Shown here: piece after piece, positions 6,458 through 28,052 of the stretch | Position numbering within the stretch: position 1 is the stretch's first letter | Layout of the letters: the number at the start of each line of letters is the position of its first letter | Assembly (NCBI RefSeq): GCF_022827545.1 | Contig: NZ_CP094669.1 | Span: forward strand, 4,891,001 to 4,955,000 | Length of the DNA: 64,000 nucleotides | From: Hymenobacter tibetensis | GTDB taxonomy: Bacteria > Bacteroidota > Bacteroidia > Cytophagales > Hymenobacteraceae | Direction of reading: 5' to 3' | Translations under genes and position numbers: made by a program | The notes under the pieces: model-generated | Told to the model about the DNA's origin: nothing | Seen by the model: the letters and a program-made list of their open reading frames with translations, nothing else | The model's database searches: none

Positions 6458-7438
6458 ATGTCTGTCCAGTTCCCACCTACCACCATTGCTGAGATGTTTG
6501 AAGCGGTTCACACCACTCAGACATTGTTGCCTAGTCCACCTAGTTTCGCCGGTCATCAAACCTTTGCCATGCGGTCAGCTTGGCTCAAAAAAGGTGTGGA
6601 TGCATTGCTGCAAGACCCTGCGGTTTTCTCTGCTGAGGGTGCATTAGTTGAGCTAGGGGTAGGTAAAAATATGGTGTCAGCTATCCGCCATTGGCTGCTG
6701 GCCACGCGATTAGCAGCCCCAACCGAGCGTGGTGGCTATATGTTGCCCACGGAGCTAGGCCACTCTCTGCTTACAAACAACGGCACCGACCCATACCTTG
6801 AAGACCCCGCCACCTTGTGGCTGTTGCATTGGAACCTCTGTGGCCCCGGTTCGCAATCCTACACCTGGGCTTTTGCCTTCAACGTCTTTCGGGAGTGGGA
6901 GTGGACGGCCTCAGCCCTGGTTACAGCAGTGCAAAATGCGGCTCGGGCTACCAGTTCTAAAACCTTCTCCCAGGAAACCGTTGAGCGCGACGTAAGCGTG
7001 TTTCTGCAAACCTACGTCGCGCCGACCGACCGCAGCCAAAACGCCGAAGACGGCCTCGATTGCCCCTTACGCGAACTAGGCTTACTCCGAGCCGGCTTTG
7101 GCGGCCAACAACAATACTCTTTCGTCATCGGCCCCAAGCCCAGCTTGCCTGTTAGCATTTTCGTTTGGGCTCTCCGCAAGTTTTGGGACTGGAAGTACCC
7201 TGGTAGCAGTACTATCGCCGCCCGCGACATTGCGCATGCAGAAGGCTCGCCAGGTATGGTCTTCAAGCTCGACGAGGATTCCACGCTAGCCTACCTCGAC
7301 CAACTCGAGGCCCTCACTGCCGGCGCGTTGCGCTTTGAGGATACGCCCCTCGTGCGCCAAGTGGTGCAAACCACGGCTGATTCCCTTAACCCCGCCGCGC
7401 TGCTGCGTCTTCACTACGCCGCCGCGCCTGTTGCCTAG
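6458..7438 (+). CDS. DUF4007-family protein, first gene of the BREX-like cluster
   Basis: The 326-residue product carries the family's hallmark blocks in order: FAGHQTFAMRSAWLKKG (about residues 30-47), VELGVGKNMVSAIRHWLLAT (about 64-83), DPYLEDPATLWLLHWNL (about 111-127) and ERDVSVFLQTYVAP followed by DGLDCPLRELGLL (about 178-212). DUF4007 proteins occur beside PAPS-reductase/DndC-type genes and PglZ-type defence clusters; their biochemical role is not established. The gene ends five bases before the next ATG, so it is translationally close to the 1123-residue ATPase. The start at 6458 is the first ATG before the conserved blocks. A second, divergent copy of the same architecture is found at 11701-12522. 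Confidence 0.85.
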   Translation: MSVQFPPTTIAEMFEAVHTTQTLLPSPPSFAGHQTFAMRSAWLKKGVDALLQDPAVFSAEGALVELGVGKNMVSAIRHWLLATRLAAPTERGGYMLPTELGHSLLTNNGTDPYLEDPATLWLLHWNLCGPGSQSYTWAFAFNVFREWEWTASALVTAVQNAARATSSKTFSQETVERDVSVFLQTYVAPTDRSQNAEDGLDCPLRELGLLRAGFGGQQQYSFVIGPKPSLPVSIFVWALRKFWDWKYPGSSTIAARDIAHAEGSPGMVFKLDEDSTLAYLDQLEALTAGALRFEDTPLVRQVVQTTADSLNPAALLRLHYAAAPVA

Positions 7439-7443
7439 CCTTC

Positions 7444-10400
7444 ATGTCCTCTGCTACCCAATTAACCCTAGCTGATATCGTTACCGTGCGGCCCCGTTTT
7501 GGCCGCTCAGTACACCTGGAGCGCGACCTTGCCACCCGCGCCACTACGCCCGATAATTACTTCCTCACGCCTTCAGCCATAGAAGCGCTGCAAGGCGTTC
7601 TACGTGCCCAGTACACGCCCACCGACCGAGCCTTGTCGCTCATTGGCCCATATGGTGCGGGCAAAAGTGCTTTCGTTACGTTCCTGGCCCGGTTGGTATC
7701 GGAACCCAAATTCAAGCATGCGGTCAAGTTGCCCGCTAAGCTGCCACCGGTGCCCCAGCTGCTGCCGGTGCCTGTTGTTGGCTCCCGCTCTGCCCTTGGT
7801 CCAGCTTTGCTGGTGGCCTTGCGTCATGCTATTGAAACCGCTCCCGGCGCGCCTGCCATACCCAGCGCGTTGCTTTCGGCCGAGCTTAAACCAACCCCTC
7901 GGAACCTAGCTAATGCCTACCTGGCTGCCGCTCAGGCCGTGGCCAACGCGGGTCAACACACAGGCCTACTATTGCTGGTTGATGAGGCCGGCAAATTCCT
8001 CGAATACGCTGCCAACCACGCCCAGGCCGGCGATATTTTCGGCCTGCAGGAGTTGGCCGAAGCCGCCGCCCGTGCCCCTCAGACCGCGCCGCTGTGGGTG
8101 ATTACAGTGCTGCACCAAAACGCCGAAGCGTACGCCAGCCGACTTGGGCGCACCCAGCAAGCCGAGTGGGCCAAAATAGCCCAGCGCTTCCGCCAGCTCC
8201 CCCTGTTTCCTTCCGATGTAGAACGGATGGACCTCATTGGTCGCGCCCTCCGTCACGACCCCGGTCTGCACCTCAACGGTACTTTCTCGGCCCAGCTCGC
8301 CCCCATTCTCGACCCTCAGAACCAGTTACTCCCCACCGGACTGGCCAGTCGTTTCGAGAAGCTCGCGCGCGCTGCTTACCCCTTGCACCCAGTAACCCTG
8401 CTAGCGGTGCCCGCCCTATTTCGTCGGGCTGGCCAGAGCCACCGCAGCGTTTTCAACTTTCTCGAAGGACAGGAAAATGGTGCGTTAGGCCGTTTCCTGA
8501 ATGACCAAGCCTACGACCCCGCCGACCCGGCCTTCTTCCCACTCGATGGCTTGTTCGACTATGGCCGCGATGTGCTGCTGGCACATTACACCGGTCCCAC
8601 TGCTAGGCCCTGGCTCGAAGCGGTAGAATTGGTGGCCCAGGCTCTCAACAAAGAACCGGTTGTAAGCCCGCTGGCTGTCCGCGCCCTCAAGTGCATTGCC
8701 TTGCTCACTTGGCTCCGCGATGCTCGGCTAAAAGCTTCGCCTACGGTACTGGCTGCAGCACTTGGTACCGAAGTGGCGCCGGCCCTCGAAGAGCTTGTCA
8801 GCCGCTCATTGGTCGTATTCAGCCGCGCCCGCGACAGCTACCGGTTGTGGGAAGCCGGCGACGTGGATATTGAAGCGGAGCTGACTACCGCCCGCGCTGG
8901 CCTAGCCGGCGACGTGTTGCTGGCCGCTACCAGCGACCCTACCCTGTTTCCGCTGCCGCGCCTCGTAGCCCGCCGCCACTCGTTTGAAACTGGCACCCTA
9001 CGTCCTGTAGGGGTGGAGGTACTGCGTCCCGACCAATTGGTCACTCGTGCTGCGACTCGCCCCGACGAGCTGACTGTACTGCTTTGCCTGGCGTCCGACC
9101 CTCTGGCTCGCGCGCTAGCAGAGCAGGAAGCCGAACGTCTCCGTCAGCCCAACTTGCTCGTTGCCGTGGCCCTAGAAACTGAAGGGCTGCGTGACACGGC
9201 CTACCATCTTGCCGCTGCCTGCATTGTCGCCGATACAGTGCCCGCGCTGGCCGGCGACCGGGCTGGCCGCCGCGAATTGGAATTACGCCGCCACGAAGCC
9301 GAAGCACAATTTCGCACGGAGTGGAGCCGCCTGTTTGGCCCCGCCCTAGGCGGCGAAGCAATACCCGCCGCAAATGCGCTCGAAATGGCTGGACTGGCTG
9401 CTACGTGGCACTGGCAAGGCCAACCCCAGCGCCTAGCTGATGCCCGCGCCTTCAGCCGCCAACTTTCCCTGCTGGCCGATCGCACCTTTGAGCGCACCCC
9501 TATCCTGCGCAACGAGATTCTGAACCGTCGTAGCCTCTCCTCGGCTGGGGCCGCTGCGCGTGGGGCTTTAGTAAAAGCCATGCTCACGCAGGGACACCAG
9601 GCCCGGCTGGGCTTCACTGGCTACCCCCCCGAGTACGCCATGTACGCCTCCGTGATGTCAGCTACAGGCTTGCACCACCTCACCAATGAAGGTGTTTGGG
9701 CATGGCGTGCCCCTGATGCTGCCCACGACCCTTACCGTCTACTGCCGGTGTGGGAGGCTATTGAACGCTTGGTGTTCCAAGCCACTGAGCCGCTGCCGCT
9801 GCCTGCCTTATATGCCCACTTGCGTGCTGCTCCCTACGGTATTTCCGATGGCGTATTGCCCGTGCTGCTGGCTGTGTTTCGCCGCGTCCGCGAGGGCGAC
9901 ACGTCCCTTTACCGGGAGGGACAGTTCCTGGCCGATGAGAAAGAAGCGGATTGGGAGTTGCTGCTCCGCCGCCCCGATATGTTCGCCCTGGCTGACTCCC
10001 GCGTCGCTGGGGCCCGCTTAGCTGTTGTCGAACGTATTGCCCAGGCCACCAATGTGCGTCCCCAGCTCGTGCCCGTCGTGCGACGCTTGCTTCGGATGCA
10101 GGACAGCCTGCCTGAATATACCCAGCAAACCCGCCACCTGCCGCTACCGGCCCGCGCCTTGCGCGATGCTTTCCAGCAGGCACGTGCGCCCGAGTACGTG
10201 TTGTTTAACGCGGCCCCGGCAGCGCTCAATCTGCCGTCGTGGTCCGCGGATGCCGCGCCAGAACCCATGCGTGTAGAAGAATTCTTCAAGCAGCTCAACG
10301 AGGCCCTCCAAGCCTGGGCCGCCGCGTACCCTGCTGCCCGTAATCAGGCCCGCGACCATTTGCTTCAGGCCTGCGGCCTACCAGCTGGCCCGGCCAGCTG

Positions 10401-10815
10401 GCTCGACCTGCACCAGCGCATCCAGCTGCTGCCGACTCTCACCTTGCCGCCCTTGCTGGGGCCTTTCGTCAGCCGTTTCACCGATACGGCCGACCCCGCC
10501 GCCGACCTCGACCGGGTGCTGGCCCTCGTCGCCAACCGCCCGCCCAACCTCTGGCGCGATACCGACCTAGCCAACTTCCCGAGCTATGCGGCTCCCTTCG
10601 GGGCGGCGCTGCAATCCGCCTGGAACGGTGCCGGTGCCGTAGCGGCTCCGGCCCGCCCCCGCGTTTCGCGAGCCGAGCAAAAGCAAGTGAAGCAGCTAGT
10701 AATGCAGCTCGACCAGGTAGCTCGGCCTACCACTGGCCCGCGCCCACCCGCCCACCTGGTGCGGGCTGCCGTGCTTGAATGGCTCGACGCGCTAGAAGAC
10801 GACCCGGCCCAATAA
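7444..10815 (+). CDS. Large P-loop ATPase of the BREX/PglY-like class
   Basis: This 1123-residue protein has a Walker A motif GPYGAGKS at residues 68-75 and a Walker B-like LLLLVDEAGKFLEYAA near 176-191. An alpha-helical, Ala/Leu/Arg-rich remainder follows. The arrangement (short N-terminus, early P-loop, DEAGKF Walker B, long helical C-terminus) resembles large STAND/ORC-like ATPases of BREX and related PglZ clusters. It is distinct from the 1449-residue BrxC/PglY ATPase encoded further downstream. It sits between DUF4007 and the PAPS reductase on the same strand, five bases after DUF4007. A role as a DNA-loading or sensing ATPase is inferred. Codon use is GC-rich like the host. Confidence 0.75.
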   Translation: MSSATQLTLADIVTVRPRFGRSVHLERDLATRATTPDNYFLTPSAIEALQGVLRAQYTPTDRALSLIGPYGAGKSAFVTFLARLVSEPKFKHAVKLPAKLPPVPQLLPVPVVGSRSALGPALLVALRHAIETAPGAPAIPSALLSAELKPTPRNLANAYLAAAQAVANAGQHTGLLLLVDEAGKFLEYAANHAQAGDIFGLQELAEAAARAPQTAPLWVITVLHQNAEAYASRLGRTQQAEWAKIAQRFRQLPLFPSDVERMDLIGRALRHDPGLHLNGTFSAQLAPILDPQNQLLPTGLASRFEKLARAAYPLHPVTLLAVPALFRRAGQSHRSVFNFLEGQENGALGRFLNDQAYDPADPAFFPLDGLFDYGRDVLLAHYTGPTARPWLEAVELVAQALNKEPVVSPLAVRALKCIALLTWLRDARLKASPTVLAAALGTEVAPALEELVSRSLVVFSRARDSYRLWEAGDVDIEAELTTARAGLAGDVLLAATSDPTLFPLPRLVARRHSFETGTLRPVGVEVLRPDQLVTRAATRPDELTVLLCLASDPLARALAEQEAERLRQPNLLVAVALETEGLRDTAYHLAAACIVADTVPALAGDRAGRRELELRRHEAEAQFRTEWSRLFGPALGGEAIPAANALEMAGLAATWHWQGQPQRLADARAFSRQLSLLADRTFERTPILRNEILNRRSLSSAGAAARGALVKAMLTQGHQARLGFTGYPPEYAMYASVMSATGLHHLTNEGVWAWRAPDAAHDPYRLLPVWEAIERLVFQATEPLPLPALYAHLRAAPYGISDGVLPVLLAVFRRVREGDTSLYREGQFLADEKEADWELLLRRPDMFALADSRVAGARLAVVERIAQATNVRPQLVPVVRRLLRMQDSLPEYTQQTRHLPLPARALRDAFQQARAPEYVLFNAAPAALNLPSWSADAAPEPMRVEEFFKQLNEALQAWAAAYPAARNQARDHLLQACGLPAGPASWLDLHQRIQLLPTLTLPPLLGPFVSRFTDTADPAADLDRVLALVANRPPNLWRDTDLANFPSYAAPFGAALQSAWNGAGAVAAPARPRVSRAEQKQVKQLVMQLDQVARPTTGPRPPAHLVRAAVLEWLDALEDDPAQ

Positions 10816-10857
10816 GCCTGTTCGCTTCTTTACTCTTACCCTCGATATTCCCATCCC

Positions 10858-11688
10858 GTGAACCTACCCAATTACACTGGTCCGCTGCATCTCGAAGGAG
10901 CCAAGGTGCGCCACATTCTCTGCCTCTCCGGTGGCAAAGATTCTACGGCTCTGGCGCTATATATGCGCGATAAAGTACCCGAAATGGAGTATGCCTTTGC
11001 CGACACCGGCGAAGAGCTGCCCGAAACTTATGATTACTTGGCTCTGCTCGAGGCCCAGCTAGGAAAGAAAATTAACCGGCTCAATCCAGACCGGCCTTTT
11101 CAACACCATCTAGATATTCGTAATGGCTTTCTCCCCTCTGGGCGTCAGCGTTGGTGCACTGATTTACTTAAAATCAAGCCGTTTGAGGCATTTGTAGGCG
11201 ATGATTTAGTGTATTCCTATGTCGGAATTCGAGCCGATGAGAACCGCTCAGGCTACATCTCCAGCAAGACTAATATCATTCCGATTCTGCCTTTCAAAGA
11301 TGATGGGCTTGGATATGACGAGGTAATGCAAATTCTGGATGACAGCGGTTTGGGTTTGCCCAAATATTATGAATGGCGCTCCCGCTCCGGATGCTACTTC
11401 TGCTTTTATCAGCAGCGCAATGAGTGGGTAGGGTTGAAGGAACGCCATCCTGACTTGTTTGAGAAATCCAAGACATTTGAGCGGTTCGATGAGGAAAGCG
11501 GAACTCGCTTCACCTGGAATCAGCGCGAAAGCTTGAATGAGCTGGAACAGCCTGAGCGCATGGCACAGATTAAAGCAGACCACCAAAAGCGGCTAGAACG
11601 TCAAAGCAACTTTGTGCCTGCCAACTTATTGGATATCCTGAGTGACGACGATGATGGCGAAGAAGGATGCCTGATTTGTCATTTATAA
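10858..11688 (+). CDS. brxP: DndC/BrxP-like phosphoadenosine phosphosulfate reductase family protein
   Basis: The 276-residue protein has the PP-loop ATP-pyrophosphatase signature LSGGKDST at residues 23-30, followed by FADTGEELPETYDYL, typical of PAPS reductase/DndC enzymes that activate a substrate by adenylation for sulfur transfer. Cys100 (RQRWCTDLLKIKP) and the Cys179/Cys182 pair (SGCYFCF) are placed like the Fe-S ligands of DndC. An unusual extra pair, Cys271/Cys274, forms the very C-terminus (GCLICHL). A GTG at 10858 is the only reasonable start before the PP-loop. PAPS reductase plus BrxC, PglZ and BrxL defines BREX type 4, where this subunit is named BrxP. Sulfur-based DNA marking is inferred, not shown. 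Confidence 0.8.
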   Translation: MNLPNYTGPLHLEGAKVRHILCLSGGKDSTALALYMRDKVPEMEYAFADTGEELPETYDYLALLEAQLGKKINRLNPDRPFQHHLDIRNGFLPSGRQRWCTDLLKIKPFEAFVGDDLVYSYVGIRADENRSGYISSKTNIIPILPFKDDGLGYDEVMQILDDSGLGLPKYYEWRSRSGCYFCFYQQRNEWVGLKERHPDLFEKSKTFERFDEESGTRFTWNQRESLNELEQPERMAQIKADHQKRLERQSNFVPANLLDILSDDDDGEEGCLICHL

Positions 11689-11700
11689 TACTAGCAAATA

Positions 11701-12522
11701 ATGGAGCCTATCGAAAATGTAGCTTTAAGCTATCATCGTGGATTTGGGTTAGTTAGAACAGCCGTTGCATCAGTACTGCGCTCGTACTCTGAGGGCTATA
11801 CCAGGGCACAGATTGAAGCTGAGTCAAAACTTGGGCCTGACCAGTTTACTGCAGCTGCAATTTATTGTGAGCGAAGTGGTTTGACGATTCAAGGCAAGCT
11901 TACTGATTTTGGCTTAACTGTAGCCGAAAATGATGCGACTTTATCTGAGTCAACAACTCAGTGGGCAATGCATTATTTTTTATCAAATCCTGCGCTCAAT
12001 TCACCTAATTATTGGGCAATGCTGACCTTGAATGGTCTGCCTTTATTAGGTCAGTTGAGCCAAGCTAGGATTTCAGAGGACATAGTTAATTACGCCCAGG
12101 AGGTTTCTGGCTGGCAACCGTCAGATAGAACCGTAAAGTCGGGAGCAACAGCTTATTTAGCTACTTATGCGAAAGAGGAGGGTTTGGGTTCACTAGGCAT
12201 CCTTGAAGAAGCCGAAGGCCGCAGCCAATACACGGTACGACAGCCTCGGGCACTGTCGGTCGGTTCGTTTGCCTGCCTACTGGCCGACTACTGGCAACGC
12301 CACTGGCCCGACCGTGCCGATGTGCTACTTGAACAAGTCACACAGGGTGAATTGGCGCGAGTGCTGCTGCTGAGCGAAAACAAGGTAAACGACCTGCTCG
12401 GCTCCCTGGCTGCCCCCGATATGGCCCTTGTGAAGCGGCAGCGCAAGCACCTGCCGTACCAGATTATCCGTCAGCCTAGCCTTGATGTGACCACCATCTG
12501 GCAAACTCACCTCTACCGCTAA
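11701..12522 (+). CDS. Divergent DUF4007-like protein
   Basis: At first sight this 273-residue protein is unrecognisable, but its layout follows the DUF4007 protein at 6458. It has a helical N-terminus with a winged-helix look (EGYTRAQIEAESKLGPDQF, FTAAAIYCERSGL), then TTQWAMHYFLSN where DUF4007 has TLWLLHW. Later come SDRTVKSGATAYLATYAKEE where DUF4007 has VERDVSVFLQTYV, and SVGSFACLLADYWQRHW where DUF4007 has SIFVWALRKFWDW. The glycine-rich LGVGKNMV block is not conserved. It starts 12 bases after the PAPS reductase and ends 13 bases before the next gene. The paralogy is my reading by eye and may be wrong; the gene itself is secure. Confidence 0.65.
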   Translation: MEPIENVALSYHRGFGLVRTAVASVLRSYSEGYTRAQIEAESKLGPDQFTAAAIYCERSGLTIQGKLTDFGLTVAENDATLSESTTQWAMHYFLSNPALNSPNYWAMLTLNGLPLLGQLSQARISEDIVNYAQEVSGWQPSDRTVKSGATAYLATYAKEEGLGSLGILEEAEGRSQYTVRQPRALSVGSFACLLADYWQRHWPDRADVLLEQVTQGELARVLLLSENKVNDLLGSLAAPDMALVKRQRKHLPYQIIRQPSLDVTTIWQTHLYR

Positions 12523-12535
12523 CGCCCACGCAACC

Positions 12536-13057
12536 GTGTCGCCTGCCACTCCTGCTTCCCTGCTAACCGATTGGTTCGATGATGAGCCGGCCTTCGATTG
12601 CGCCGCTGTGCCCATACCCGTGCTGGCCTTGGTGCGAGCGCTGGCCAGCGGCACCACTACCCGGCGCTGCGCAGTGCTGTGGCTGTCGCCAGCTGCCTAT
12701 ATCGCTGGTCCCCGCTGGGCTACCCACTGCCTCGAGATACAGCCCCGACACCTGGGCCGCGAAGTGCTGGCAACTTGCGAAGCCCAGGGTACCCAACGCA
12801 TACCTGCCAGTGCTTCTGACCTGCTCCGTCACCTACATACCGCAACTGCCGGTACCACAGGCACCTGGCTTTGGGGCCTTGATGCCTTGCTCACCCGCCT
12901 GTCTACCACTGAAGTACAGGTATTTTGGGCAGCCCTTTTCGACTTGCGTCAGCGCCCACCCTTGCTTCTAGCTCTGCCCCAGAACTACCGCGACTTCGGC
13001 CCCCCCGAACCCAGCCGCTGGCTTCAGGCCGACCCCTGCCGGGGGGTGGAGGTCTGA
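12536..13057 (+). CDS. Small BrxF-like protein (degenerate P-loop fold suspected)
   Basis: The 173-residue protein begins at a GTG (12536); no in-frame ATG precedes the conserved-looking part. A hydrophobic strand RCAVLWLSPAAYIAG is followed by TWLWGLDALLTRLSTTEVQ and FWAALFDLRQRPPLLLALPQ. The last two resemble the Walker B and sensor strands of the small P-loop proteins found in BREX clusters (BrxF class), but no Walker A lysine motif is visible. It lies 13 bases after the DUF4007-like gene and 66 bases before the BrxC-like gene, so it is part of the same operon. The BrxF assignment is tentative; it may instead be a cluster-specific scaffold. Confidence 0.5.
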   Translation: MSPATPASLLTDWFDDEPAFDCAAVPIPVLALVRALASGTTTRRCAVLWLSPAAYIAGPRWATHCLEIQPRHLGREVLATCEAQGTQRIPASASDLLRHLHTATAGTTGTWLWGLDALLTRLSTTEVQVFWAALFDLRQRPPLLLALPQNYRDFGPPEPSRWLQADPCRGVEV

Positions 13058-13123
13058 GCTGCTGCCTTCACGACTATTATATTGATTTTTGGTTTCTCCC
13101 GTCCTAATTAGCGTTTACCTTTA

Positions 13124-16100: not shown

Positions 16101-17473
16101 ACGACCTGCGAGCTACCCGCCGCAACGAGGAAATGGTGGAAGACGAAGTGCAGGAGTTACTCAGCAAGCTGCGCTACCCCGTACCCATGGCGCTGGCTGA
16201 GGCCGACACCGTGCTTCAAAAGCTTACCCAGTTTGCCAGCACTGAAGGCGGTAAACCCCACCTGCGCGACGAAGCGGAGCAAGCTGCCCGCCAGCTCACC
16301 CACGAAGTGCAGCAGGCTCAGGATTACGAAGCTCGCATAAGCGGCGGCATCAATAGCCTGGAATCAGTGCCTACTACCGCCAACGGCATCAAACAGCTTA
16401 TTGACCTCTACCAGTTGTTTAGTGACCCCACTAAAGCTGGGGTGCCACTGGGCCGGGTGCTACCCCCCAGCCAAGCCACCATCGTCCAGGCTCAGAAGGG
16501 CGCTAGTATTAAGCTCAGGCCCCTGCTTAGCGATGTATGCTCGGAACTGGCCAACGCCTCAGTGCGGAGTTACGAGCTTAACAAGCAAAACTTGAACAAA
16601 CTACTGGCCCTGCTCGCCCCCTTAGGCGAACCCGACTTGGAGCGGCGGGTGCGCGATGCTCAGCAGCAGCTGGAAAATCTCAATGAAGAATTTGGTAAAG
16701 AAGCACTGGATAAGGACATCCGCGATAAAGTAACCGAGTCGCGTAAGGCTAATGCCTTGGCCGATGTGCGAGAATTGCTGAACCTGTTTGATATCGCCGA
16801 CCCTAAAGCTGATTCTACAGTATCAATGGTAGCCGAGGCCACCATTGCCCTCACCACCAAGCGCCAAGAAGCCGAAGCCTGGCTGCTGTCCATGCAGGAG
16901 CGGGCCCAAGCCTTCACCGAAGGTGCCGCTATCACCACTTTCGAGCGCGACCTCAACCGCCGCGCCGCCCAGTTTGAAGGTACCCCCGAGGCCGAGCAAA
17001 TCAAGGAATTGGAGTTTCACGCCAAGCGGACTACCACCTTGTTGGCTGACCTCAAGGAATTGCGTCGTGAGAAGCCTAAAACAGCTGACGACATGCGCCG
17101 GGTGGTTAAGGAATACGAGCGCCTCGCGGCACGTGATGGCTTAGCCGAGGCCCAACTTACCCTCGTTGCCCAGGAACGCACCGAATTCGAGAGCCGATTC
17201 GACCAACAGCGTCAGGCTGCCCGTGAAAAGCTTGATGAGCTAATTCGCCGCAACGAGGCCCAGGAAGCTCCCGCTTTGCTGTTGGCCGATGTGGAGAAAA
17301 AACTTGAATTCCTACCCGCCGAAGACAAACCTCGCCGCGATGCGCTGGAGAAAGACCTGAAGCGTCGCGTCGCCAAAGACCGCGCCAGCGTCGCCGAGAA
17401 GGCCTTTCTCGATATTGGTAGTCGCGCCGAGCAAAAGGCCTTACTAGTGCGCCTTCAGCAGTTTCTAGACTAG
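13124..17473 (+). CDS. brxC: BrxC/PglY-like ATPase of the BREX cluster
   Basis: The 1449-residue product has Walker A in LQATYGHGKSHLALALANFF (GHGKS at about 89-93) and Walker B in GILVLFDEFAAFVEAYARQY (about 273-292), both characteristic of BrxC/PglY proteins. The FGQ, LLAFSQQDP and HPLHPLTTALLCSATLR segments continue the ORC/STAND-like ATPase core. The last 400 residues are strongly charged and coiled-coil-like (SRKANALADVRELLNLFD, RRDALEKDLKRRVAKD). Length fits the family (about 1200-1450). In BREX systems this ATPase is essential for defence and works with PglZ. PglZ follows 39 bases downstream. The start is the ATG at 13124, preceded by a 66-base gap that could carry its own ribosome-binding region. 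Confidence 0.85.
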   Translation: MTLYSTLIGDVTVPNPDFRFVYDVRLSQYPADPDNLALAKAYQWTNQRIGADEQPSVQVLETVCNAYEYSAHDSNKKEDPRRVLQATYGHGKSHLALALANFFGQPSGSNEVEAVLAGVKHVAPGVETRLRTFKADRKPHLVLRLTGGGDDSLSAAVVRGFEKALNENPDTRGTDLGLWFDKALTALDKFSPEQAAIANKYLEATAPGENIDLGALRATLHGDLRDGRYRELTHQLVEHVLGVYPNFGAALTPRELLNKVGRDFCGPDKPFAGILVLFDEFAAFVEAYARQYGRHTDSQPLQSLLDGISDLQKPDPGQVGKRNRAVLLAFSQQDPDDVAELAMRERGASKSALGDLKKELTRLPNEARNPLYSPMEAVLDAYLKQNKSLWDELTPDDSIADNDVVDAVDAVRNFFPQRYTDAAGWTLDRIRHTLAYGCHPLHPLTTALLCSATLRAGSAARTVLSFVTDAMKDMQGRRALDDDQRLCWVRPIALVAYYKHQLVSDDDWKQFQTTLGKATPAKIPHTEATLQAMLLYGTAGFQPGDTDATDYSGALAVLTGLARPLIKRTLENLESAGYIELDPVSATYRFWANNQDGSQVRVAVAEGLEKLRRDDNRMLTALYRGLKDEEAKFAPVGEVVFHGSTNADWSARVMFVPRQLWSPAYLADLLKPRCLENGRLSDAARGYVLVPLAATEGDVQWLRQHAEADLNQAVSTLADRQQVPPVVVVLPKKPHDALLNAVLELDVLTNLSEAQKRDLGTEPLTLRRTAVRATVQSALDVLKTDVRAAADYAVPTLHRSGIERLLTSKRVVNLTHILAAAYETVYYRFAPYLGEPTRGPKLREAVGLAAVRLYKGNFLDWAANTERGNLGRARDLYSKVLRIGSPGSWGVVDTSERVVAPKLSLVKHAWDLLEATVPPGAEAQPLRPVLLQLLNAPYGYDPWSLGLLFATWCGVNRHQLQISDAAGKVLDYKTWLGTGNNFETILESILHTYDLRATRRNEEMVEDEVQELLSKLRYPVPMALAEADTVLQKLTQFASTEGGKPHLRDEAEQAARQLTHEVQQAQDYEARISGGINSLESVPTTANGIKQLIDLYQLFSDPTKAGVPLGRVLPPSQATIVQAQKGASIKLRPLLSDVCSELANASVRSYELNKQNLNKLLALLAPLGEPDLERRVRDAQQQLENLNEEFGKEALDKDIRDKVTESRKANALADVRELLNLFDIADPKADSTVSMVAEATIALTTKRQEAEAWLLSMQERAQAFTEGAAITTFERDLNRRAAQFEGTPEAEQIKELEFHAKRTTTLLADLKELRREKPKTADDMRRVVKEYERLAARDGLAEAQLTLVAQERTEFESRFDQQRQAAREKLDELIRRNEAQEAPALLLADVEKKLEFLPAEDKPRRDALEKDLKRRVAKDRASVAEKAFLDIGSRAEQKALLVRLQQFLD

Positions 17474-17512
17474 AGCTTCAAACTACTTTGCCGTCTATCT
17501 TCCATATTCGTT

Positions 17513-19831
17513 ATGCTACCTGCTCTTTCCTCTTTTCTGCTGCTCGACCCCCACGGTGATGCCCGCGTTCCGGTAGGTTATGCTGTCGTCGCCACCGAGT
17601 TGGAATGGCTGCGCGAAACTACTAGCATCGGCCTCTCAGCGCCGCCCATCGTGGTACGCGGCCTTGAGCTCACACGGTGGGTAAGGAAGTGGTGGGAAGC
17701 GCGGGGCGGCGAGTGTCAGGAGTTAGTTTCACCCGGTTACACGCTCCAACGCTTGGTAGCTACTTTGCCTACCGCTACCGCTCAGGCCATAGCCGAGGAA
17801 TTGCATACCCATTGGGGAGCCGACACGTGGCCCGCTCCGCTCACGCTGCCGGCCGTCCTCACCGCGCTATATCCGGCCGCCCAGGCATTGTGGAAGTCAG
17901 ACTCTAATAACGAACCTGCTGCCGTAGCGGCTATTGCCGGGCAGTGGCTAGCTTGGCTGCACCATACCGACCAAGTTGAGTGGCCCTCGCAACACGTCGC
18001 CTTGCTAACCGCATGGCTGGCTGAGTGGGAAAAAGCTGCCCCCCAGGCAGCCCTGCTGATGCCGCTTGACCCGGCAATGGCTCTGACTACTTACCAGGCC
18101 TGGGTAGGATTGGCCCCGGCTCCGCTAGCCCGGCCTTTGCGCCAGGCTTTCGCTTGGGCTGGACCTTGCCCAGCGCCTGTGCCCGCCCCGTGGTCCGCCG
18201 CTGCCCGGCAGTACTGGGAAACCGACCTGCCGCGCTACGTAGATGCCCGACCTACCGGCACCGAGGCTAGCTTAGCAGTTGCCGCTTGGTGGGCGCAAAC
18301 CAATAACCAACTCTTACATCCCGACTTGCTACCACTAGTTCTCAACGTAGCCGTGCAGTACGTTTCCCAGCACCGAGCGGCCCTCACAGCTGACCTTCTG
18401 CGCACTTTGCGGGCTAGTATGGCTCCCGAAGATTATGCTCGGTTGGTTCGCTACCTGCCCCCACCCGAGCCCGGCCCCCTGCCTGATGAGCCCGAGGCGG
18501 TGTTGCGTTGGACGACCGACGAGTACCTTCCTTACCGCCTCTGGCAAGCGACCCTTGACCAGCCCGACGAAGCTGCCATTGCCACCGTGCGTCATCACGC
18601 GTTGGCATTTGGTGCGTGGCTGCTGACCACTTACCCCGCTCGCTTGGTTGGGGCTACTCATCCTTATCAGCATCTCTATTGGGCTCAACCCAATCGGGTA
18701 CTTCCCCAGTCTCCCAACGAGGTGGTGGTATGGGTAATTGCTGACGGACTGAGTTGGGCTGATGCCCGCTTCGTAGCCCAAAAAACAGGCGAATTGTCCG
18801 CCAACCGTCTATCTACTACCGAAGCAGCCCGTTGCTTTGGCCTGCTGCCTACTATCACTCATTTTACCAAAGTGCCAGTACGGGCGGGTATCCCTTACCA
18901 AAACACCTTAGGTCGTCTGCCTGAGTTGGCCTCCGCTGCTACTGCTGACGTGCGCGACAGTCAAGATCCTGTGCAACGTGCCAGCCAACTTGCCGGCGGC
19001 CAACTTCTAGTCTGGAAGCCTTTGCAACCCGATGCCGCCTATCACGAATCAGCTGAAGCTTCCGTGGTGCGCCGCAATGCGTTGGGCATTCTTACTACTT
19101 TGGCCCAAACCATTGTGGACGTAGCCCAGGAAATTCCCCGCTCTCTGGCCCTGCGGGTATTGCTCACCACCGACCACGGCCGCATGGCCGGCCTTGGCAC
19201 TCGCGCTGTGACCGTGCCCGAGGGTTTCGAAGCCCACGGCCGAGTAGCTTACCGCTTGGTCCCTGGTCCACCCCCTGCACCTTCCCCCGATATTGAATGG
19301 CTTGACCCCGAGTTTTTCAGCTTACCCGGCTGGGCTGGGGTAGTGCGCGACGAGCGCAGCTTTCGTAAGCTACGCAAAGATGGCAGCCAAGCCGGAGGCC
19401 CCGACAACTTCTCTCACGGTGGTATCTGGCCCGAAGAAGTGGTAGTGCCATGGCTCACAATCCAGCGCGATGCCGTGCCCATCAAAATTACAGGTAGCGC
19501 TACCGGCCGGGCACGAGCGGGGAGTACCGGTACGATTACCCTACAGCTGTTCAACGAAGCCGACCGCCCCGTTCGCTTACGGCGGCTTCAAATTAGCTGG
19601 ACGGGTACCCCACCTTTTGAAGCTGAAGTCAGTACGACCCTGTCCGGCCAGCAAAGCACGTCTGTTTCCGTGCCACTCTCGAATTGGCCCGATGGTTTGC
19701 GCATCGGCACGGCTACTTTATTTATCACCGTCGAGCTGGCTGATGGCCGCGAGCAGCAGTTTTCGCTAACTAATCAACTCAGCACCGACGAATTTCAAAC
19801 TCGCCAGGTCGACCTGCTCGGCGACCTCTAA
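17513..19831 (+). CDS. pglZ: PglZ-domain protein (alkaline-phosphatase superfamily), BREX core
   Basis: The 772-residue protein has a helical N-terminal half and an alkaline-phosphatase-like core. The core includes VVVWVIADGLSWADARF at about residues 402-418 (metal-binding Asp and nucleophile region) and VLLTTDHGRMAGLG at about 547-560, whose DHG supplies metal ligands. It continues with DNFSHGGIWPEEVVVPWLTI at about 628-647 (His ligand). A beta-rich C-terminal domain of about 120 residues follows (TGTITLQLFNEADRPVRLRR). PglZ is the marker protein of all BREX types and is thought to act as a nuclease or phosphodiesterase within the complex. The gene lies between BrxC-like and BrxL-like genes in the order expected for type 4. 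Confidence 0.88.
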   Translation: MLPALSSFLLLDPHGDARVPVGYAVVATELEWLRETTSIGLSAPPIVVRGLELTRWVRKWWEARGGECQELVSPGYTLQRLVATLPTATAQAIAEELHTHWGADTWPAPLTLPAVLTALYPAAQALWKSDSNNEPAAVAAIAGQWLAWLHHTDQVEWPSQHVALLTAWLAEWEKAAPQAALLMPLDPAMALTTYQAWVGLAPAPLARPLRQAFAWAGPCPAPVPAPWSAAARQYWETDLPRYVDARPTGTEASLAVAAWWAQTNNQLLHPDLLPLVLNVAVQYVSQHRAALTADLLRTLRASMAPEDYARLVRYLPPPEPGPLPDEPEAVLRWTTDEYLPYRLWQATLDQPDEAAIATVRHHALAFGAWLLTTYPARLVGATHPYQHLYWAQPNRVLPQSPNEVVVWVIADGLSWADARFVAQKTGELSANRLSTTEAARCFGLLPTITHFTKVPVRAGIPYQNTLGRLPELASAATADVRDSQDPVQRASQLAGGQLLVWKPLQPDAAYHESAEASVVRRNALGILTTLAQTIVDVAQEIPRSLALRVLLTTDHGRMAGLGTRAVTVPEGFEAHGRVAYRLVPGPPPAPSPDIEWLDPEFFSLPGWAGVVRDERSFRKLRKDGSQAGGPDNFSHGGIWPEEVVVPWLTIQRDAVPIKITGSATGRARAGSTGTITLQLFNEADRPVRLRRLQISWTGTPPFEAEVSTTLSGQQSTSVSVPLSNWPDGLRIGTATLFITVELADGREQQFSLTNQLSTDEFQTRQVDLLGDL

Positions 19832-19845
19832 CTATTTCTGCTCCG

Positions 19846-21330
19846 ATGGCTCTTACTTCTGATGAATTATTCGGTGGTCTCTTTGACGAAGGCACTCTGT
19901 CCATGCCTAACCTCGTGAACGGTGTTGACCTGGTTGCGCTCGAAGCCAAAGTTGTGCGGGTTTTCGGCAACGTGTCCATCGACAAGCGTCGCCTGCCTGC
20001 TTCCAAGTTGCAAAGTCGGGGCATCCCTGGTTATGTGGCCGAGTGGGTACTTGAATCCAGAGCCCCTGGCCGCGGGCCTCTTTCTGCTGAAGATGCCGCC
20101 ACAGTGTTGGAGTGGGCGGCCCGCGTTGTACCCAAGGCCGACGAGGGCAACCTCATCCGCAACCGCCTCCTTAATGGCGAGGCCGTGCGTATCCTCACGC
20201 CCGTGCAGGTAGATGTGAACCTGACCGGCAAAAAAGCTGAACGTGTGGCCAAGCTGCCCATGATTGGTGAGGAGAGGGCGCAGATTGCCGAACACCTGCT
20301 CGAAGCATACCCCGCCCTGCTTCAACAAGGGATGTGGGGGGTGGCCCAGCTGCTTTACATCCGCGATCAAGGCATTGTCATCACCGAGTTCCAGCCCATG
20401 CAATCTACTGTGGACTTGAACCGTTGGCGCGAAGCCCGGCGCGAGTTCAGTCTCCCGGAATGGCGCTCCTTGCTTATGCTCACCATGGGCTACAATCCCG
20501 CTGCCTATACCCCCGAAGCTCAATTACTAGTGTTGGCTCGTCTCTTACCATTGGTGCAAAAAAACGTGCATCTCATGGAACTAGCCCCCAAGGGAACAGG
20601 CAAAAGCTACGTGTACGAGAATATTTCTCCCCTTGTGCGTCTTATCAGCGGCGGCAATGTGTCGCCAGCCGTGCTTTTTGTCAATAACCAAACCAACCAG
20701 CCCGGCATTTTGGCCCGCTATGCTGTTGTTGTACTCGATGAAGTACAGACTCTAAAATTCGAGAACCCAGCCGAAATTGTCGGCGGCCTTAAGGGTTACT
20801 TAGCTAACGGTAAAATATCGCGGGGCGGCAAGCACGAAATGGCTTCCGACTGCGGATTCGTGTTATTGGCCAACATCACCCTTGATGCAAACCAGCGGCC
20901 TGCTCGCCAATCCATTGTAAGTGAGTTGCCCGTCTTCTTGCAGGAAACAGCCTTTCTCGACCGTATTCGAGGCCTTATCCCAGGCTGGCAAATACCTAAG
21001 CTCTCTCCTACCAGTTTCGCCGAACAGAGTGGCCTCAAAGCTGATTATTTCAGTGATATTCTGCTGCTGCTGCGTCAGGACTTAGAAATTGACGCTTACT
21101 GCGCCCGCCACATTAACCTTGGCCCAGATGCCTATCAGCGCAATCAGGAAAGTGTTCGGGCCTTGTCCAGTGGCTACATGAAACTTCTCTTCCCCCACGG
21201 TGAGGTTAATGACGCTGACTTTAAAAAGTACTGTGTCCAACCTGCCACCGACCTACGCCAAGGTGTATGGGACCAGCTTTACAACCTCGACCCCGAGTAT
21301 CGCAAGTATGGGCAATTCGTTGCCCCCTAA
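19846..21330 (+). CDS. brxL: BrxL-like AAA+ protein, short form without a visible Lon protease domain
   Basis: The 494-residue product begins NGVDLVALEAKVVRVFGNVS and continues KGIP-like SRGIPGYVAEWVLE and LLNGEAVRILTPVQVDVNLT, the BrxL N-terminal region. Walker A is ELAPKGTGKSYVYENIS (about 245-261), Walker B VVVLDEVQTLKFENP (about 293-307), and VFLQETAFLDRIRGLIPGW carries the sensor and arginine-finger region. BrxL proteins of type 1 systems are about 680 residues and end in a Lon-like domain. Here the protein ends about 40 residues after a helical segment, DLRQGVWDQLYNLDPEYRKY, with no Ser-Lys protease motif. The stop is followed 10 bases later by the cysteine desulfurase start, so this looks like the native end, not a fresh truncation. 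Confidence 0.85.
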   Translation: MALTSDELFGGLFDEGTLSMPNLVNGVDLVALEAKVVRVFGNVSIDKRRLPASKLQSRGIPGYVAEWVLESRAPGRGPLSAEDAATVLEWAARVVPKADEGNLIRNRLLNGEAVRILTPVQVDVNLTGKKAERVAKLPMIGEERAQIAEHLLEAYPALLQQGMWGVAQLLYIRDQGIVITEFQPMQSTVDLNRWREARREFSLPEWRSLLMLTMGYNPAAYTPEAQLLVLARLLPLVQKNVHLMELAPKGTGKSYVYENISPLVRLISGGNVSPAVLFVNNQTNQPGILARYAVVVLDEVQTLKFENPAEIVGGLKGYLANGKISRGGKHEMASDCGFVLLANITLDANQRPARQSIVSELPVFLQETAFLDRIRGLIPGWQIPKLSPTSFAEQSGLKADYFSDILLLLRQDLEIDAYCARHINLGPDAYQRNQESVRALSSGYMKLLFPHGEVNDADFKKYCVQPATDLRQGVWDQLYNLDPEYRKYGQFVAP

Positions 21331-21340
21331 TTATCTATCA

Positions 21341-22516
21341 ATGTCCCCGCTCATTTATCTCGACCACCACGCCACCACGCCCTGTGACCCAGTAGTTGTA
21401 GAGACTATGCTGCCCTACTTTACGGCACAATTCGGTAACCCGTCTTCCGCTCACTTCGCTGGCAGCCGGGCTGCCGATGCTGTGCAGTTGGCCCGTGAGC
21501 AAGTGGCGGCATTAGTGGGTGCTCAACCCGGTGAGGTCATTTTCACTAGTGGCGCCACAGAAGCCAACAACTTGGCCCTACTTGGTTATGCCCGGGCCGC
21601 GCAAGCAACCAACCCGCGCCGTCGCATCATCATTTCGGCTATTGAGCACAAAGCCATTACCAATCCAGCCAAGCAGCTCGTGCGTGAAGGCTTTGAAGTG
21701 ATTGTTCTTCCCGTTGATGCACAAGGAACAGTAAGTATGGCGGCGGCGGCAGAAGCCATAAATGCTAATACGCTTCTGGTTTCCATCCATGCTGCTAATG
21801 GGGAGGTTGGTACCATCCAGCCCATAGCCGCGCTAGCCCAACTTGCCCACGCCGCCGGAGCCCTGATGCACACCGATGCCGCTCAAGCCGTCGGCAAAAT
21901 CCCGGTTGACATGCTAGCCTGGGGCGTCGATATGCTCTCCCTAAGCGGCCATAAGCTCTACGGCCCCCAAGGCATAGGAGCCCTCATTGTGCGTCACCCC
22001 CGCCGTACCCAGCTCGAACCACTCGGCTACGGTGGTGGCCAAGAGCGCAACTGGCGCTCAGGCACCCTCAATGTTCCCGGTATCGTCGGCCTGGGTGCCG
22101 CCTGCAGCCGTTGCGCCCAGGTATTACCTGAGGAAAGTACCCGCCTAGCAACATTGCGCGACGCATTCGAAATGGATGTTCTAAAAGCCGTGCCCAACGC
22201 TTACCGCAACGGCAACACCCAAAACCGGCTACCTCACAATGCTAGTCTAACCTTTCCGGGTATTGAAGCCGATGCTCTATTAGCTCGCCTGCCGACCCTG
22301 GCTCTCAGTACTGGCTCTGCCTGCGACGCTGGTACCATTGAGCCGTCTCCCATACTGTTAGCTTTAGGGCTTTCTCGTGATAATGCCCGCGCCACTGTAA
22401 GAGTAGGGATGGGACGGTTTAATACAGCAGAAGAAGTGATTGAGGCCAGAGTGACACTAGAGGTTCAGATCGTCAAACTTAGAAGACTGCTTGCGGACTC
22501 TTTTTATAAATCTTGA
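21341..22516 (+). CDS. dndA: Cysteine desulfurase (DndA/IscS-like) within the BREX cluster
   Basis: A PLP-dependent class V aminotransferase of 391 residues that takes sulfur from cysteine as an enzyme persulfide. I start at the ATG at 21341 (MSPLIYLDHHATTPCDPVV); the frame is open further upstream but overlaps brxL. Visible are the N-terminal YLDHHATTP block, FTSGATEANNLAL, the PLP-binding SLSGHKLYGPQGIGAL near residue 204, and the active-site cysteine loop STGSACDAGTIEPSP near 322-336. The family more often has SACTSG, so the Asp after Cys is slightly unusual. Its position directly after brxL suggests it feeds sulfur to the BrxP/DndC-like protein, as DndA does for DndC. A housekeeping role is less likely here. 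Confidence 0.85.
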   Translation: MSPLIYLDHHATTPCDPVVVETMLPYFTAQFGNPSSAHFAGSRAADAVQLAREQVAALVGAQPGEVIFTSGATEANNLALLGYARAAQATNPRRRIIISAIEHKAITNPAKQLVREGFEVIVLPVDAQGTVSMAAAAEAINANTLLVSIHAANGEVGTIQPIAALAQLAHAAGALMHTDAAQAVGKIPVDMLAWGVDMLSLSGHKLYGPQGIGALIVRHPRRTQLEPLGYGGGQERNWRSGTLNVPGIVGLGAACSRCAQVLPEESTRLATLRDAFEMDVLKAVPNAYRNGNTQNRLPHNASLTFPGIEADALLARLPTLALSTGSACDAGTIEPSPILLALGLSRDNARATVRVGMGRFNTAEEVIEARVTLEVQIVKLRRLLADSFYKS

Positions 22517-23692: not shown

Positions 23693-23723
23693 GTAAGTAC
23701 CTTGCAGTTTTAAGACCTGTTAT

Positions 23724-27469: not shown

Positions 27470-28052
27470 AGTTTCTCTTTCTCAAACTGAAGCAATTGCG
27501 CCAATTGGATTGCGTTACTTGCCAGAGTATGTATCTACACGTCTGGAGGATCGATTGTTGGATTTGATTGACGCTGCTCCTTGGTTAGGTGACCTCAAAC
27601 GTCGCGTGCAACACTACGGATACCGGTATGATTATAAGTCCCGACGCATTGACCGCTCGATGTACTTAGGGCCACTGCCGCACTGGTGTGAGTATTATGC
27701 GCAAAAATTTGCTGAAGAAGGTGTTTTTAGAAGCCCGCCTGACCAAGTCATTATCAATGAGTATTTGCCTGGTCAGGGCATTGCACCTCATATTGACTGC
27801 ACTCCATGCTTTGAAGATACCATAGTTTCATTGAGCTTAGGATCTGCTTGCGTCATGAATTTCACGAACTTAGCTGACCCTACCCAACACTACAATCAGC
27901 TTTTGGAGCGTGGCAGCGCCGTCGTCCTCCAACACGCTGCTCGTTTTGAATGGCAGCATGGAATTAAACCGTTAAAATCAGACCCTGTCAACGGTCAGCG
28001 CCTGCCACGGCAGCGCCGCGTTTCTTTGACCTTTCGTAAAGTAAAGCTCTAA
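27441..28052 (+). CDS. AlkB-like Fe(II)/2-oxoglutarate dioxygenase
   Basis: The 203-residue protein has all expected ligands of the AlkB group. PHIDC gives His117 and Asp119, WQHGIKP gives His173, and RRVSLTFR gives Arg193 and Arg199 for 2-oxoglutarate. INEYLPGQGIAPH and the nucleotide-lid segment HYGYRYDYKSRRI are also family-like. AlkB enzymes remove alkyl groups from DNA or RNA bases. The start ATG at 27441 lies inside the upstream gene and follows GAGGAGGTAACGT, an unusually good ribosome-binding site for this phylum. As the last gene of the run, directly before a 72-base hairpin, it may edit or reverse a modification made by the neighbouring methyltransferase-like protein, or protect host DNA; both are inference. 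Confidence 0.8.
   Translation: MSYSLFNPLEVSLSQTEAIAPIGLRYLPEYVSTRLEDRLLDLIDAAPWLGDLKRRVQHYGYRYDYKSRRIDRSMYLGPLPHWCEYYAQKFAEEGVFRSPPDQVIINEYLPGQGIAPHIDCTPCFEDTIVSLSLGSACVMNFTNLADPTQHYNQLLERGSAVVLQHAARFEWQHGIKPLKSDPVNGQRLPRQRRVSLTFRKVKL

What the first reader, a model, noticed from the sequence alone, without database searches (positions are those of the whole stretch)
6458..22516. BREX type 4-like cluster carrying its own cysteine desulfurase
Gene order DUF4007, ATPase, PAPS reductase (BrxP/DndC-like), DUF4007-like, BrxF-like, BrxC, PglZ, BrxL, cysteine desulfurase. The brxP-brxC-pglZ-brxL core is the published BREX type 4 definition; to my knowledge its modification chemistry is unresolved. 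No PglX-type methyltransferase (no NPPY motif in any product) is present, and no DndB, DndD or DndE was recognised. A DndA-like desulfurase 10 bases after brxL plus a DndC-like protein with cluster-type cysteines suggests a sulfur-based mark made by BREX proteins. That would link BREX and Dnd systems, as a hybrid of both.
Basis: partly seen in the sequence, partly recalled or inferred. Interest (0 to 1): 0.85.

Follow-up and report, generated by a model that had tools for sequence, protein, structure and literature searches.

The report
Sulfur-marking system paired with BREX
A bacterium carries one nine-gene cluster that appears to put a sulfur tag on its own DNA with one known enzyme set and to attack untagged phage DNA with parts of a different known defence system, joined by a DNA-binding adaptor protein that in some close relatives carries a sulfur-reading domain.

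Summary
The gene order at 6458-22516 is real, but it is not canonical BREX type 4. Genes 1-3 plus the last look like a complete SspABCD phosphorothioate (PT) writer. Between them lies a five-gene module without PglX: second DUF4007, small protein, second large SspC-like ATPase, PglZ, BrxL. Two canonical type 4 loci of the same phylum have BrxP-BrxC-PglZ-BrxL and one large ATPase. The nine-gene order is kept in 10 of 12 family genomes with a long second-ATPase match, on a Thermomicrobium plasmid and, with insertions, on a Pseudanabaena plasmid. Across 11 loci SspBCD and the five-gene module reassort. The second DUF4007 is split: residues 1-165 co-vary with SspD, residues 166-273 with ATPase2/BrxL. 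Three of those loci have an N-terminal extension there; the IS2118 one matches a solved PT sulfur-binding domain, E 8e-24; G006's copy is frame-broken. Reading: SspABCD writes PT, DUF4007 reads target or PT, ATPase2-PglZ-BrxL restricts. PT-making by type 4 BREX, often with a desulfurase, is already in print. New here: two-module anatomy, swappable adaptor, sulfur-reader fusion. All function is inferred.

The parts
6458..7438 (+). SspB (DUF4007), 326 aa: DNA-binding subunit of the PT writer
   Evidence: PADLOC SspB 3.2e-97; Pfam DUF4007 6.5e-80; matches solved SspB 6juf/6lb9 E 2e-35
7444..10815 (+). SspC, 1123 aa: ATPase of the PT writer, Walker A GPYGAGKS, Walker B LLLVDE
   Evidence: PADLOC SspC 1.5e-275 (a BrxC model 3.2e-148 also fits); motifs seen in 10 of 11 aligned loci, altered in G144; G015's aligned fragment lacks that stretch
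10858..11688 (+). SspD, 276 aa: PAPS-reductase-like sulfur transferase, SGGKDS loop, RWCT motif plus CYFC and CLIC pairs
   Evidence: PADLOC SspD 2.5e-113; SGGKDS and these cysteines kept in 11 of 11 aligned loci; CxxC at residues 179 and 271
11701..12522 (+). second DUF4007 protein (DUF4007b), 273 aa: proposed target/PT-reading adaptor; residues 1-165 travel with SspD, residues 166-273 with ATPase2/BrxL
   Evidence: Pfam DUF4007 5.2e-10; bipartite co-variation; orthologue L009 carries an N-terminal sulfur-binding domain
12536..13057 (+). p173, 173 aa: small protein of unknown fold; by my reading no Walker A and a Walker-B-like WLWGLDALL strand; co-evolves with ATPase2 and PglZ
   Evidence: 54 relatives by profile; alignment of 46; rho 0.85 with ATPase2 and PglZ over 10 loci
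13124..17473 (+). ATPase2, 1449 aa: second large SspC/BrxC-superfamily ATPase (GHGKSH, LFDEF)
   Evidence: 261 relatives from a capped candidate list; profile match to SspC E 5e-24 over 762 columns, to two type 4 BrxC 2e-9; motifs
17513..19831 (+). PglZ, 772 aa: putative metal-dependent nuclease/phosphodiesterase, motifs ADG, LPTIT, TTDHG, HGGxWPEE
   Evidence: PADLOC PglZ 2.3e-52; D411, G412, P446, T449, D554, H555, G556, H635, E641, E642 among the invariant columns in 9 aligned proteins; profile match to E. coli HS PglZ 4e-6
19846..21330 (+). BrxL, 494 aa (short form without the C-terminal part of the 679-aa solved BrxL)
   Evidence: PADLOC BrxL 8.9e-190; matches solved BrxL 8emc E 1e-56 including Walker A GTGKS
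21341..22516 (+). SspA/DndA-type cysteine desulfurase, 391 aa, catalytic Cys in GSACD, PLP Lys in SGHK
   Evidence: PADLOC DndA 4e-144 and SspA 5e-144 tie; solved SspA 6m4j E 4e-68, but IscS-type solved chains match better, best 3e-96, and NCBIfam NifS and DndA models stay under their cutoffs; start codon

Best explanation
A two-module, PT-based restriction-modification system. Writer module: SspA takes sulfur from cysteine and loads SspD, and SspB and SspC select and present DNA so that one backbone oxygen at a short motif is replaced by sulfur. Restriction module: DUF4007b, p173, ATPase2, PglZ and BrxL form a BREX-like complex. ATPase2 is the motor or scaffold, PglZ the nuclease or phosphodiesterase, and BrxL the DNA-binding AAA+ that blocks phage replication. 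DUF4007b is the adaptor: its N-terminal part (in some relatives with a fused sulfur-binding domain) reads the target or the PT mark, and its C-terminal part docks on the ATPase2/BrxL complex. Inferred: that PT is made, that DUF4007b reads it, which way the switch works (PT protects or PT activates), and phage defence itself.
For: SspABCD assignment; intact catalytic motifs; nine-gene order in 10 of 12 family genomes with a long ATPase2 match and on two plasmids of other phyla, with insertions in Pseudanabaena; each of those 12 loci lies beside ssp genes; SspBCD and the five-gene module form separate co-variation blocks (rho 0.64-0.75 and 0.64-0.93; cross-block 0.03-0.45); DUF4007b split: residues 1-165 rho 0.77 with SspD and 0.18 with ATPase2, residues 166-273 rho -0.03 with SspD and 0.88 with ATPase2 (sliding window); similar exchange boundary in 3 of 3 chosen contrasts; SBD match 8e-24 for IS2118 with the pocket His, Lys and Pro that PMC6224610 describes.
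Against: No PT measurement. The sulfur-binding domain is absent from the window's own DUF4007b and found in 3 of 11 loci, one with a broken frame; only the IS2118 copy was tested against solved structures. sspD and duf4007b are adjacent, so one recombination tract could carry both without functional coupling. In a fourth comparison (window/G039, same SspD class) similarity ends earlier, 277 bp into duf4007b. DUF4007b residues 166-273 also correlate with SspB (0.37). The loci are related and the permutation p-values (0.0014 and 5e-5) do not fully correct for that; the 165/166 split was chosen after seeing the data, although the sliding window shows the same crossover. p173 could not be tied to BrxB or BrxF. 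The desulfurase resembles IscS-type solved enzymes more than solved SspA.
Confidence: 0.72

Rival explanations
1. It is an ordinary BREX type 4 system in which the DUF4007-PAPS fusion is split and the desulfurase kept; nothing mechanistically new.
For: PMC12839542 (section 34 read) counts PT writer genes, BrxL, PglZ and a desulfurase (255 of 457 taxa) as type 4, says the fusion is frequent rather than universal, and treats type 4 BrxC as the SspC homologue. Its supplementary loci were not visible to me and may include nine-gene loci.
Against: Two ATPases and two DUF4007 proteins here. Type 4 loci L050 and L051 have one large ATPase that matches our SspC HMM at only 36 and 21 bits and gave no ATPase2 hit, and their PglZ gave no hit to ours (these HMMs were built from close relatives, and the SspB HMM also missed the DUF4007 part expected in BrxP, so absence of weak homologues is not proven). 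The main-text passages I read do not describe a second ATPase or second DUF4007.
Confidence: 0.2
2. SspABCD and the PglZ/BrxL module are neighbours in a defence island but work independently; the five-gene module restricts by a PT-independent cue.
For: The two halves evolve independently. The window looks like a defence island (bSEFIR gene, integrase).
Against: The 12 family loci with long ATPase2 matches keep ssp genes at the same place; the order recurs in two other phyla; the second DUF4007 co-varies with SspD over residues 1-165 and carries a PT-binding domain in IS2118; SspA sits beyond BrxL at the far end of the unit.
Confidence: 0.12
3. PT activates rather than protects: the module is a PT-sensing effector like SspE, with host PT licensing attack on invading DNA.
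For: SspE is PT-dependent (PMC8092258 passages); an SBD fusion fits either direction.
Against: SspFGH restricts DNA that lacks PT and DndFGH harms PT-deficient cells (PMC8092258 passages), and known BREX spares marked DNA. No datum here separates the two.
Confidence: 0.3
4. DUF4007b belongs to the writer (a second specificity subunit) and the SBD guides maintenance of PT rather than restriction.
For: Residues 1-165 co-vary with SspD (rho 0.77); sspD and duf4007b are adjacent.
Against: Residues 166-273 co-vary with ATPase2, BrxL and PglZ (0.88, 0.88, 0.77) and not with SspC or SspD (0.03, -0.03), though SspB gives 0.37. In 4 of 14 genomes with compact SspD the locus has SspFGH-sized genes and no DUF4007b gene was recognised.
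Confidence: 0.12

Closest known systems
SspABCD PT modification with SspE or SspFGH
   Same: SspA, SspB, SspC and SspD by PADLOC models; in this family SspBCD also pairs with SspF/SspH genes (PADLOC-tested in L086).
   Different: The restriction partner here is a second DUF4007, p173, ATPase2, PglZ and BrxL, not SspE or SspFGH. PMC8092258 says 2,211 of 2,678 (its 83.9%) sspBCD examples lack sspFGH or sspE and that more restriction counterparts may exist (passage; the two figures do not quite agree).
BREX type 4 (BrxP-BrxC-PglZ-BrxL)
   Same: PglZ and BrxL with a PT writer instead of a methyltransferase.
   Different: No BrxP fusion; separate SspB, SspC and SspD; two ATPases; two DUF4007 proteins; PglZ hits a different PADLOC model (PDLC02549 here, PDLC02550 in L050).
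BREX type 1 (E. coli HS)
   Same: Analogous layout: DNA-binding protein, small protein, large ATPase, PglZ, BrxL.
   Different: No PglX; no detectable sequence match of DUF4007b to BrxA or p173 to BrxB, weak for ATPase2 to BrxC (single E. coli sequences used).
SBD-containing type IV restriction enzymes (ScoMcrA, SBDHga)
   Same: IS2118 DUF4007b N-terminal region matches SBDHga1 (8h0l), E 8e-24.
   Different: Fused to DUF4007 and embedded in a PT-writing operon instead of to an HNH nuclease attacking PT-DNA.

Membership tests
SspABCD PT modification | SspB, SspC and SspD homologues adjacent, with SspA or another desulfurase | tested here: met
   PADLOC E-values 3e-97, 1.5e-275, 2.5e-113, 5e-144; whether the desulfurase is SspA or another IscS-type enzyme is not settled (DndA model ties)
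SspABCD PT modification | Catalytic motifs intact (SspD SGGKDS and cysteines, SspA Cys and PLP Lys, SspC Walker A/B) | tested here: met
SspABCD PT modification | PT present in host DNA on one strand | not testable with these tools
   needs LC-MS/MS
SspABCD-SspE / SspABCD-SspFGH | SspE or SspFGH as partner | tested here: not met
   No SspE or SspF/G/H hit listed for the nine cluster proteins and the next gene (for the next gene 25 of 27 families are shown)
BREX type 4 | BrxP (PAPS reductase of the BrxP family) | tested here: not met
   SspD vs BrxP model only 6e-8; no BrxP match at E<=1e-30 in own genome
BREX type 4 | PglZ and BrxL | tested here: met
BREX type 4 | BrxC of the type 4 kind as sole large ATPase | tested here: not met
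   two ATPases here; our SspC HMM scores two type 4 BrxC 36 and 21 bits, no ATPase2 hit
BREX type 1/2/3 | PglX-type methyltransferase | tested here: not met
   no NPPY-like motif in cluster; BREX-1 PglX model best 61 bits in the genome, cutoff 500; models of other types not run
Dnd | DndC, DndD, DndE | tested here: not met
   only weak DndC hits (8e-5), no DndD or DndE
BrxB/BrxF iSTAND (for p173) | sequence or profile similarity to BrxB/BrxF | tested here: inconclusive
PT sulfur-binding domain (for the DUF4007b extension in IS2118) | homology to a solved SBD and His/Arg-Lys/Pro pocket residues | tested here: met
   8h0l E 7.9e-24, PHK and P of PFFHL aligned; pocket roles from PMC6224610 passages; the extension is in 3 of 11 loci, not in the window itself

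The most novel reading that the evidence does not exclude
This is a distinct class of PT defence: an autonomous SspABCD writer coupled to a BREX-type restriction complex through a swappable adaptor. The second DUF4007 is the missing specificity subunit of a methyltransferase-less BREX; its N-terminal half is exchanged together with sspD, as target-recognition domains are in restriction-modification systems, and nature has made versions that read sulfur directly through a fused sulfur-binding domain.
Probability: 0.55. Interest if true: 0.78.

Novelty: new variant of a known kind. Interest (0 to 1): 0.62.

Why it matters
More than four in five sspBCD examples were reported without sspFGH or sspE, and the authors asked whether further restriction counterparts exist (PMC8092258, passage); this proposes one with a defined gene set. 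It also separates which BREX parts serve restriction and which serve marking, because here the writer is its own module, and it offers a physical link (a sulfur-binding domain fused to the DUF4007 adaptor) through which a BREX complex could sense a backbone mark. How BREX senses its mark is an open question that purified parts of these loci could test directly.

Tried and rejected
Tried: 'desulfurase is the only IscS' (rejected). PglX elsewhere in the genome (BREX-1 model only; not found above cutoff). p173 as BrxF/BrxB (not supported). DUF4007b as a sequence relative of E. coli BrxA (no match; a fold-level link is claimed in PMC12839542, passage). ATPase2 against solved structures: best hit E 0.005 to an unrelated chain, mostly in its coiled-coil-like C-terminal part. 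PglZ and SspC against solved structures: nothing useful; SspD only PptA, 1.6e-4. Survey of non-Bacteroidota genomes could not be centred there; the plasmid collection gave 3, 3 and 4 records, of which Annamia is fragmented and Abditibacteriota weak, neither counted. The third BrxP-positive genome (G575) was not read in context. For the co-variation, G069 was left out (SspD, DUF4007b and p173 not found there) and, also G144 (very divergent SspBCD); G066 has no p173 row, G144 no SspA row, and G015's SspC row is an 860-aa fragment. The contrast G066/G006 was chosen although G144 is slightly closer to G006 in ATPase2 (72 against 69%), because G144 has a long-form SspD. In one search the SspB-DUF4007b and SspD-SspC partial correlations were also nominally significant (0.35, p 0.011; 0.35, p 0.028), and the DUF4007b N-part with ATPase2 given SspD (0.35, p 0.023).

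What I saw of papers: PMC12839542 passages plus sections 34 and 39; PMC8092258, PMC6459918, PMC10853773, PMC11931770, PMC12707154, PMC12205998, PMC7188994, PMC6224610, PMC11437467 passages only. Yuan et al. (PMC12914056) not held, nothing seen. I found no description of the nine-gene two-ATPase anatomy or of an SBD-DUF4007 fusion in searches of the open-access library; some lists were capped (20 of 73, 30 of 40, 40 of 91 papers shown), most hits were seen as listings only, and supplements were not available. One search was ineffective (a word stem was asked for as a whole word) and is not counted.
Full report
What is there. The window lies at 4891001-4955000 of contig 1 of a 6.3 Mb genome. Nine + strand genes with gaps of 5-66 bp run from 6458 to 22516. 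By PADLOC and Pfam they are SspB, SspC, SspD, a second DUF4007, a 173-aa protein without hits, a 1449-aa protein without significant hits, PglZ, BrxL and an SspA/DndA-type desulfurase. The label BrxP is wrong, because the PAPS reductase is SspD (2.5e-113 against 6e-8 for BrxP). The labels BrxF (fifth gene) and BrxC (sixth gene) were not confirmed.

The writer half is known. SspABCD makes single-strand phosphorothioate in Vibrio and E. coli (PMC8092258 and PMC7188994 passages). Here all four subunits are present with intact motifs in the window: SGGKDS and three cysteine sites in SspD, GSACD and SGHK in SspA, Walker A and B in SspC (in IS2118 and the MAG the residue before HK of SspA differs, Lys kept). 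The organism has two other strong class-V desulfurase-type hits of 293 and 254 bits, so the cluster copy is not the only one. The desulfurase itself matches IscS-type solved enzymes (3e-96) better than solved SspA (4e-68), so SspA is assigned by context as much as by sequence.

The restriction half. PglZ keeps the DG, DHG and HGGxxPEE motifs as invariant columns in nine aligned proteins from three phyla, and its DHG and HGG segments align with E. coli HS PglZ (E 4e-6). [quoted passage not shown] BrxL matches solved BrxL (1e-56) but is the short form. Of 25 aligned members, 10 match a PADLOC SspC model and few match BrxC models. In profile comparison it is nearest to SspC (5e-24, 762 columns), then to type 4 BrxC (2e-9, 408 columns), then to E. 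coli HS BrxC (0.005, 98 columns). The second profile holds only 2 sequences and the third is a single sequence, so this ranking is tentative.

Not canonical type 4. The BrxP model finds 3 of 395 phylum genomes, all in one genus. The two that I read in context (L050, L051) have BrxP 786 aa, BrxC 1385/1383 aa, PglZ and BrxL, with no second large ATPase ORF and no desulfurase recognised in the 20 and 17 kb fetched. No separate SspB was recognised either, but the HMM used also missed the DUF4007 part expected in BrxP, so that absence is weak.

Distribution. Of 204 family genomes, 14 match the ATPase2 profile and 12 do so over most of its length (G069 from model position 77). In those 12, the nine genes are in order in 10: window, IS2118=G084 and MAG=G117 (both with one extra gene between sspC and sspD), G042, G064, G122, G039, G006, G066, and G015 whose sspC is in two frames. 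G144 lacks SspA and has very divergent SspBCD. G069 has SspB and a truncated SspC, then other ORFs before ATPase2. The p173 call is weak in G066. The other two, G056 and G021, match weakly. G056 holds a second, very divergent version: SspB-SspC-SspD-288 aa-DUF4007-144 aa-1553 aa ATPase-PglZ-BrxL without SspA recognised. G021's contig starts within the locus; ATPase, PglZ and BrxL were labelled. Outside the family the order recurs on a Thermomicrobium roseum plasmid and, with insertions, on a Pseudanabaena plasmid, where the small gene was not labelled by the p173 HMM and aligns at 21%. A 395-genome phylum sample gave 7 genomes, three of the same genus (own included) and four with partial or weak hits, so the system looks rare in Bacteroidota outside this family.

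SspBCD has several partners. 39 of 204 family genomes have an SspD match. Fourteen have the compact form: ten of these are ATPase2 loci, and four (G018, G033, G096, G101) have SspFGH-sized genes instead, confirmed by PADLOC for SspF and SspH in G018 only. In G508 an SspB-SspC-SspD-SspA run is followed by SspF-, SspG- and DndH/SspH-like genes and then a DUF4007b-like (41 bits) and an ATPase2-like gene (143 bits), so that pair can sit with a different effector.

Two modules and an adaptor. Pairwise identities over 11 loci show SspB/C/D co-varying (rho 0.64-0.75) and DUF4007b/p173/ATPase2/PglZ/BrxL co-varying (0.64-0.93), with 0.03-0.45 between blocks; SspA follows neither closely, apart from 0.59 with SspB. 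For example G039 has SspBCD 96-98% identical to the window but ATPase2 and PglZ only 36%. DUF4007b is itself split. Over ten loci (45 pairs), residues 1-165 follow SspD (0.77) rather than ATPase2 (0.18), and residues 166-273 follow ATPase2 (0.88) and BrxL (0.88) and not SspD (-0.03); SspB gives 0.27 and 0.37 (one search gave the same picture with a cut near residue 175). A sliding window puts the crossover around residues 140-180. Partial permutation tests give p 0.0014 for the N-part with SspD given ATPase2 and 5e-5 for the C-part with ATPase2 given SspD. In three contrasts between ATPase2 relatives with different SspD classes (window/IS2118, G122/G015, G066/G006) the unalignable DNA around the sspD-duf4007b junction runs from about 105-150 bp before the end of sspD to about 480-545 bp into duf4007b; G066/G006 has two further gaps, at the end of sspC and inside ATPase2. 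In window/G039, of the same SspD class, similarity ends 277 bp into duf4007b. Linkage of adjacent genes can explain co-transfer; the repeated boundary inside duf4007b is what suggests an adaptor.

The sulfur reader. In IS2118, G015 and G006, the loci of the second SspD class, DUF4007b has an N-terminal extension (ORFs of 423, 422 and 357 aa). The IS2118 extension matches SBDHga1 (8h0l) at 7.9e-24 and keeps the His-Lys pair and Pro of the sulfur pocket described in PMC6224610 (passages). G015's extension aligns with it, and G006's matches an HMM built from those two (9e-30), but neither was itself compared with solved structures. The G006 copy is interrupted by a frame break. The window protein lacks the extension, and no other match was found in the window or fetched loci at E 1e-4 with that two-sequence HMM.

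Verdict. The cluster is best read as SspABCD writing PT and a DUF4007b-p173-ATPase2-PglZ-BrxL complex restricting, with DUF4007b in between. The general link between BREX and PT is in print (PMC12839542 and PMC11931770). The separate writer, second ATPase, split adaptor and SBD fusion were not found in the texts searched (lists partly capped), but PMC12839542's supplements were out of reach and its type 4 set may include such loci. No function was measured.

Noticed in passing
window 1338-2546 (-): TIR/SEFIR protein, PADLOC bSEFIR 6e-62: a separate defence gene just upstream.
   Followed up: no
window 22559-25922 (+): SF1 helicase-like 377 aa and a 732-aa protein with a 2CompART (ADP-ribosyltransferase-like) domain hit directly follow sspA; homologues follow sspA in L040 too (42% over 98% and 36% over 30%, the latter cut by the stretch end). 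Possibly an accessory pair.
   Followed up: partly
window 25949-28052 (+): Weak methyltransferase-like 506-aa protein (PADLOC C3a159 1e-22) and an AlkB-like 2OG-Fe(II) oxygenase.
   Followed up: no
window 28486-29844 (-): Tyrosine recombinase with Arm-DNA-bind_5; the region may be a mobile or integrated island; no tRNA in the window.
   Followed up: no
L009:6465-7283 and L010:6963-7703: An AHJR-like REase-fold gene sits between sspC and sspD in two loci.
   Followed up: no
L043 and L052 (G508): SspABCD locus with SspF-, SspG- and DndH/SspH-like genes followed by DUF4007b-like and ATPase2-like genes: a second reader/motor pair next to a different effector set.
   Followed up: partly
L092 and L093 (G056, G021): Very divergent version with a 1553/1559-aa ATPase, PglZ and BrxL; G056 also has a 288-aa gene with a sub-threshold GIY-YIG hit (E 0.012) and no SspA recognised.
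   Followed up: partly
L084 (G116): SspBCD beside a PbeA-like helicase (PADLOC 2e-28), another possible partner.
   Followed up: no
L044 (NC_011961.1): The Thermomicrobium copy lies next to a type III-B CRISPR module on a 918 kb plasmid.
   Followed up: no
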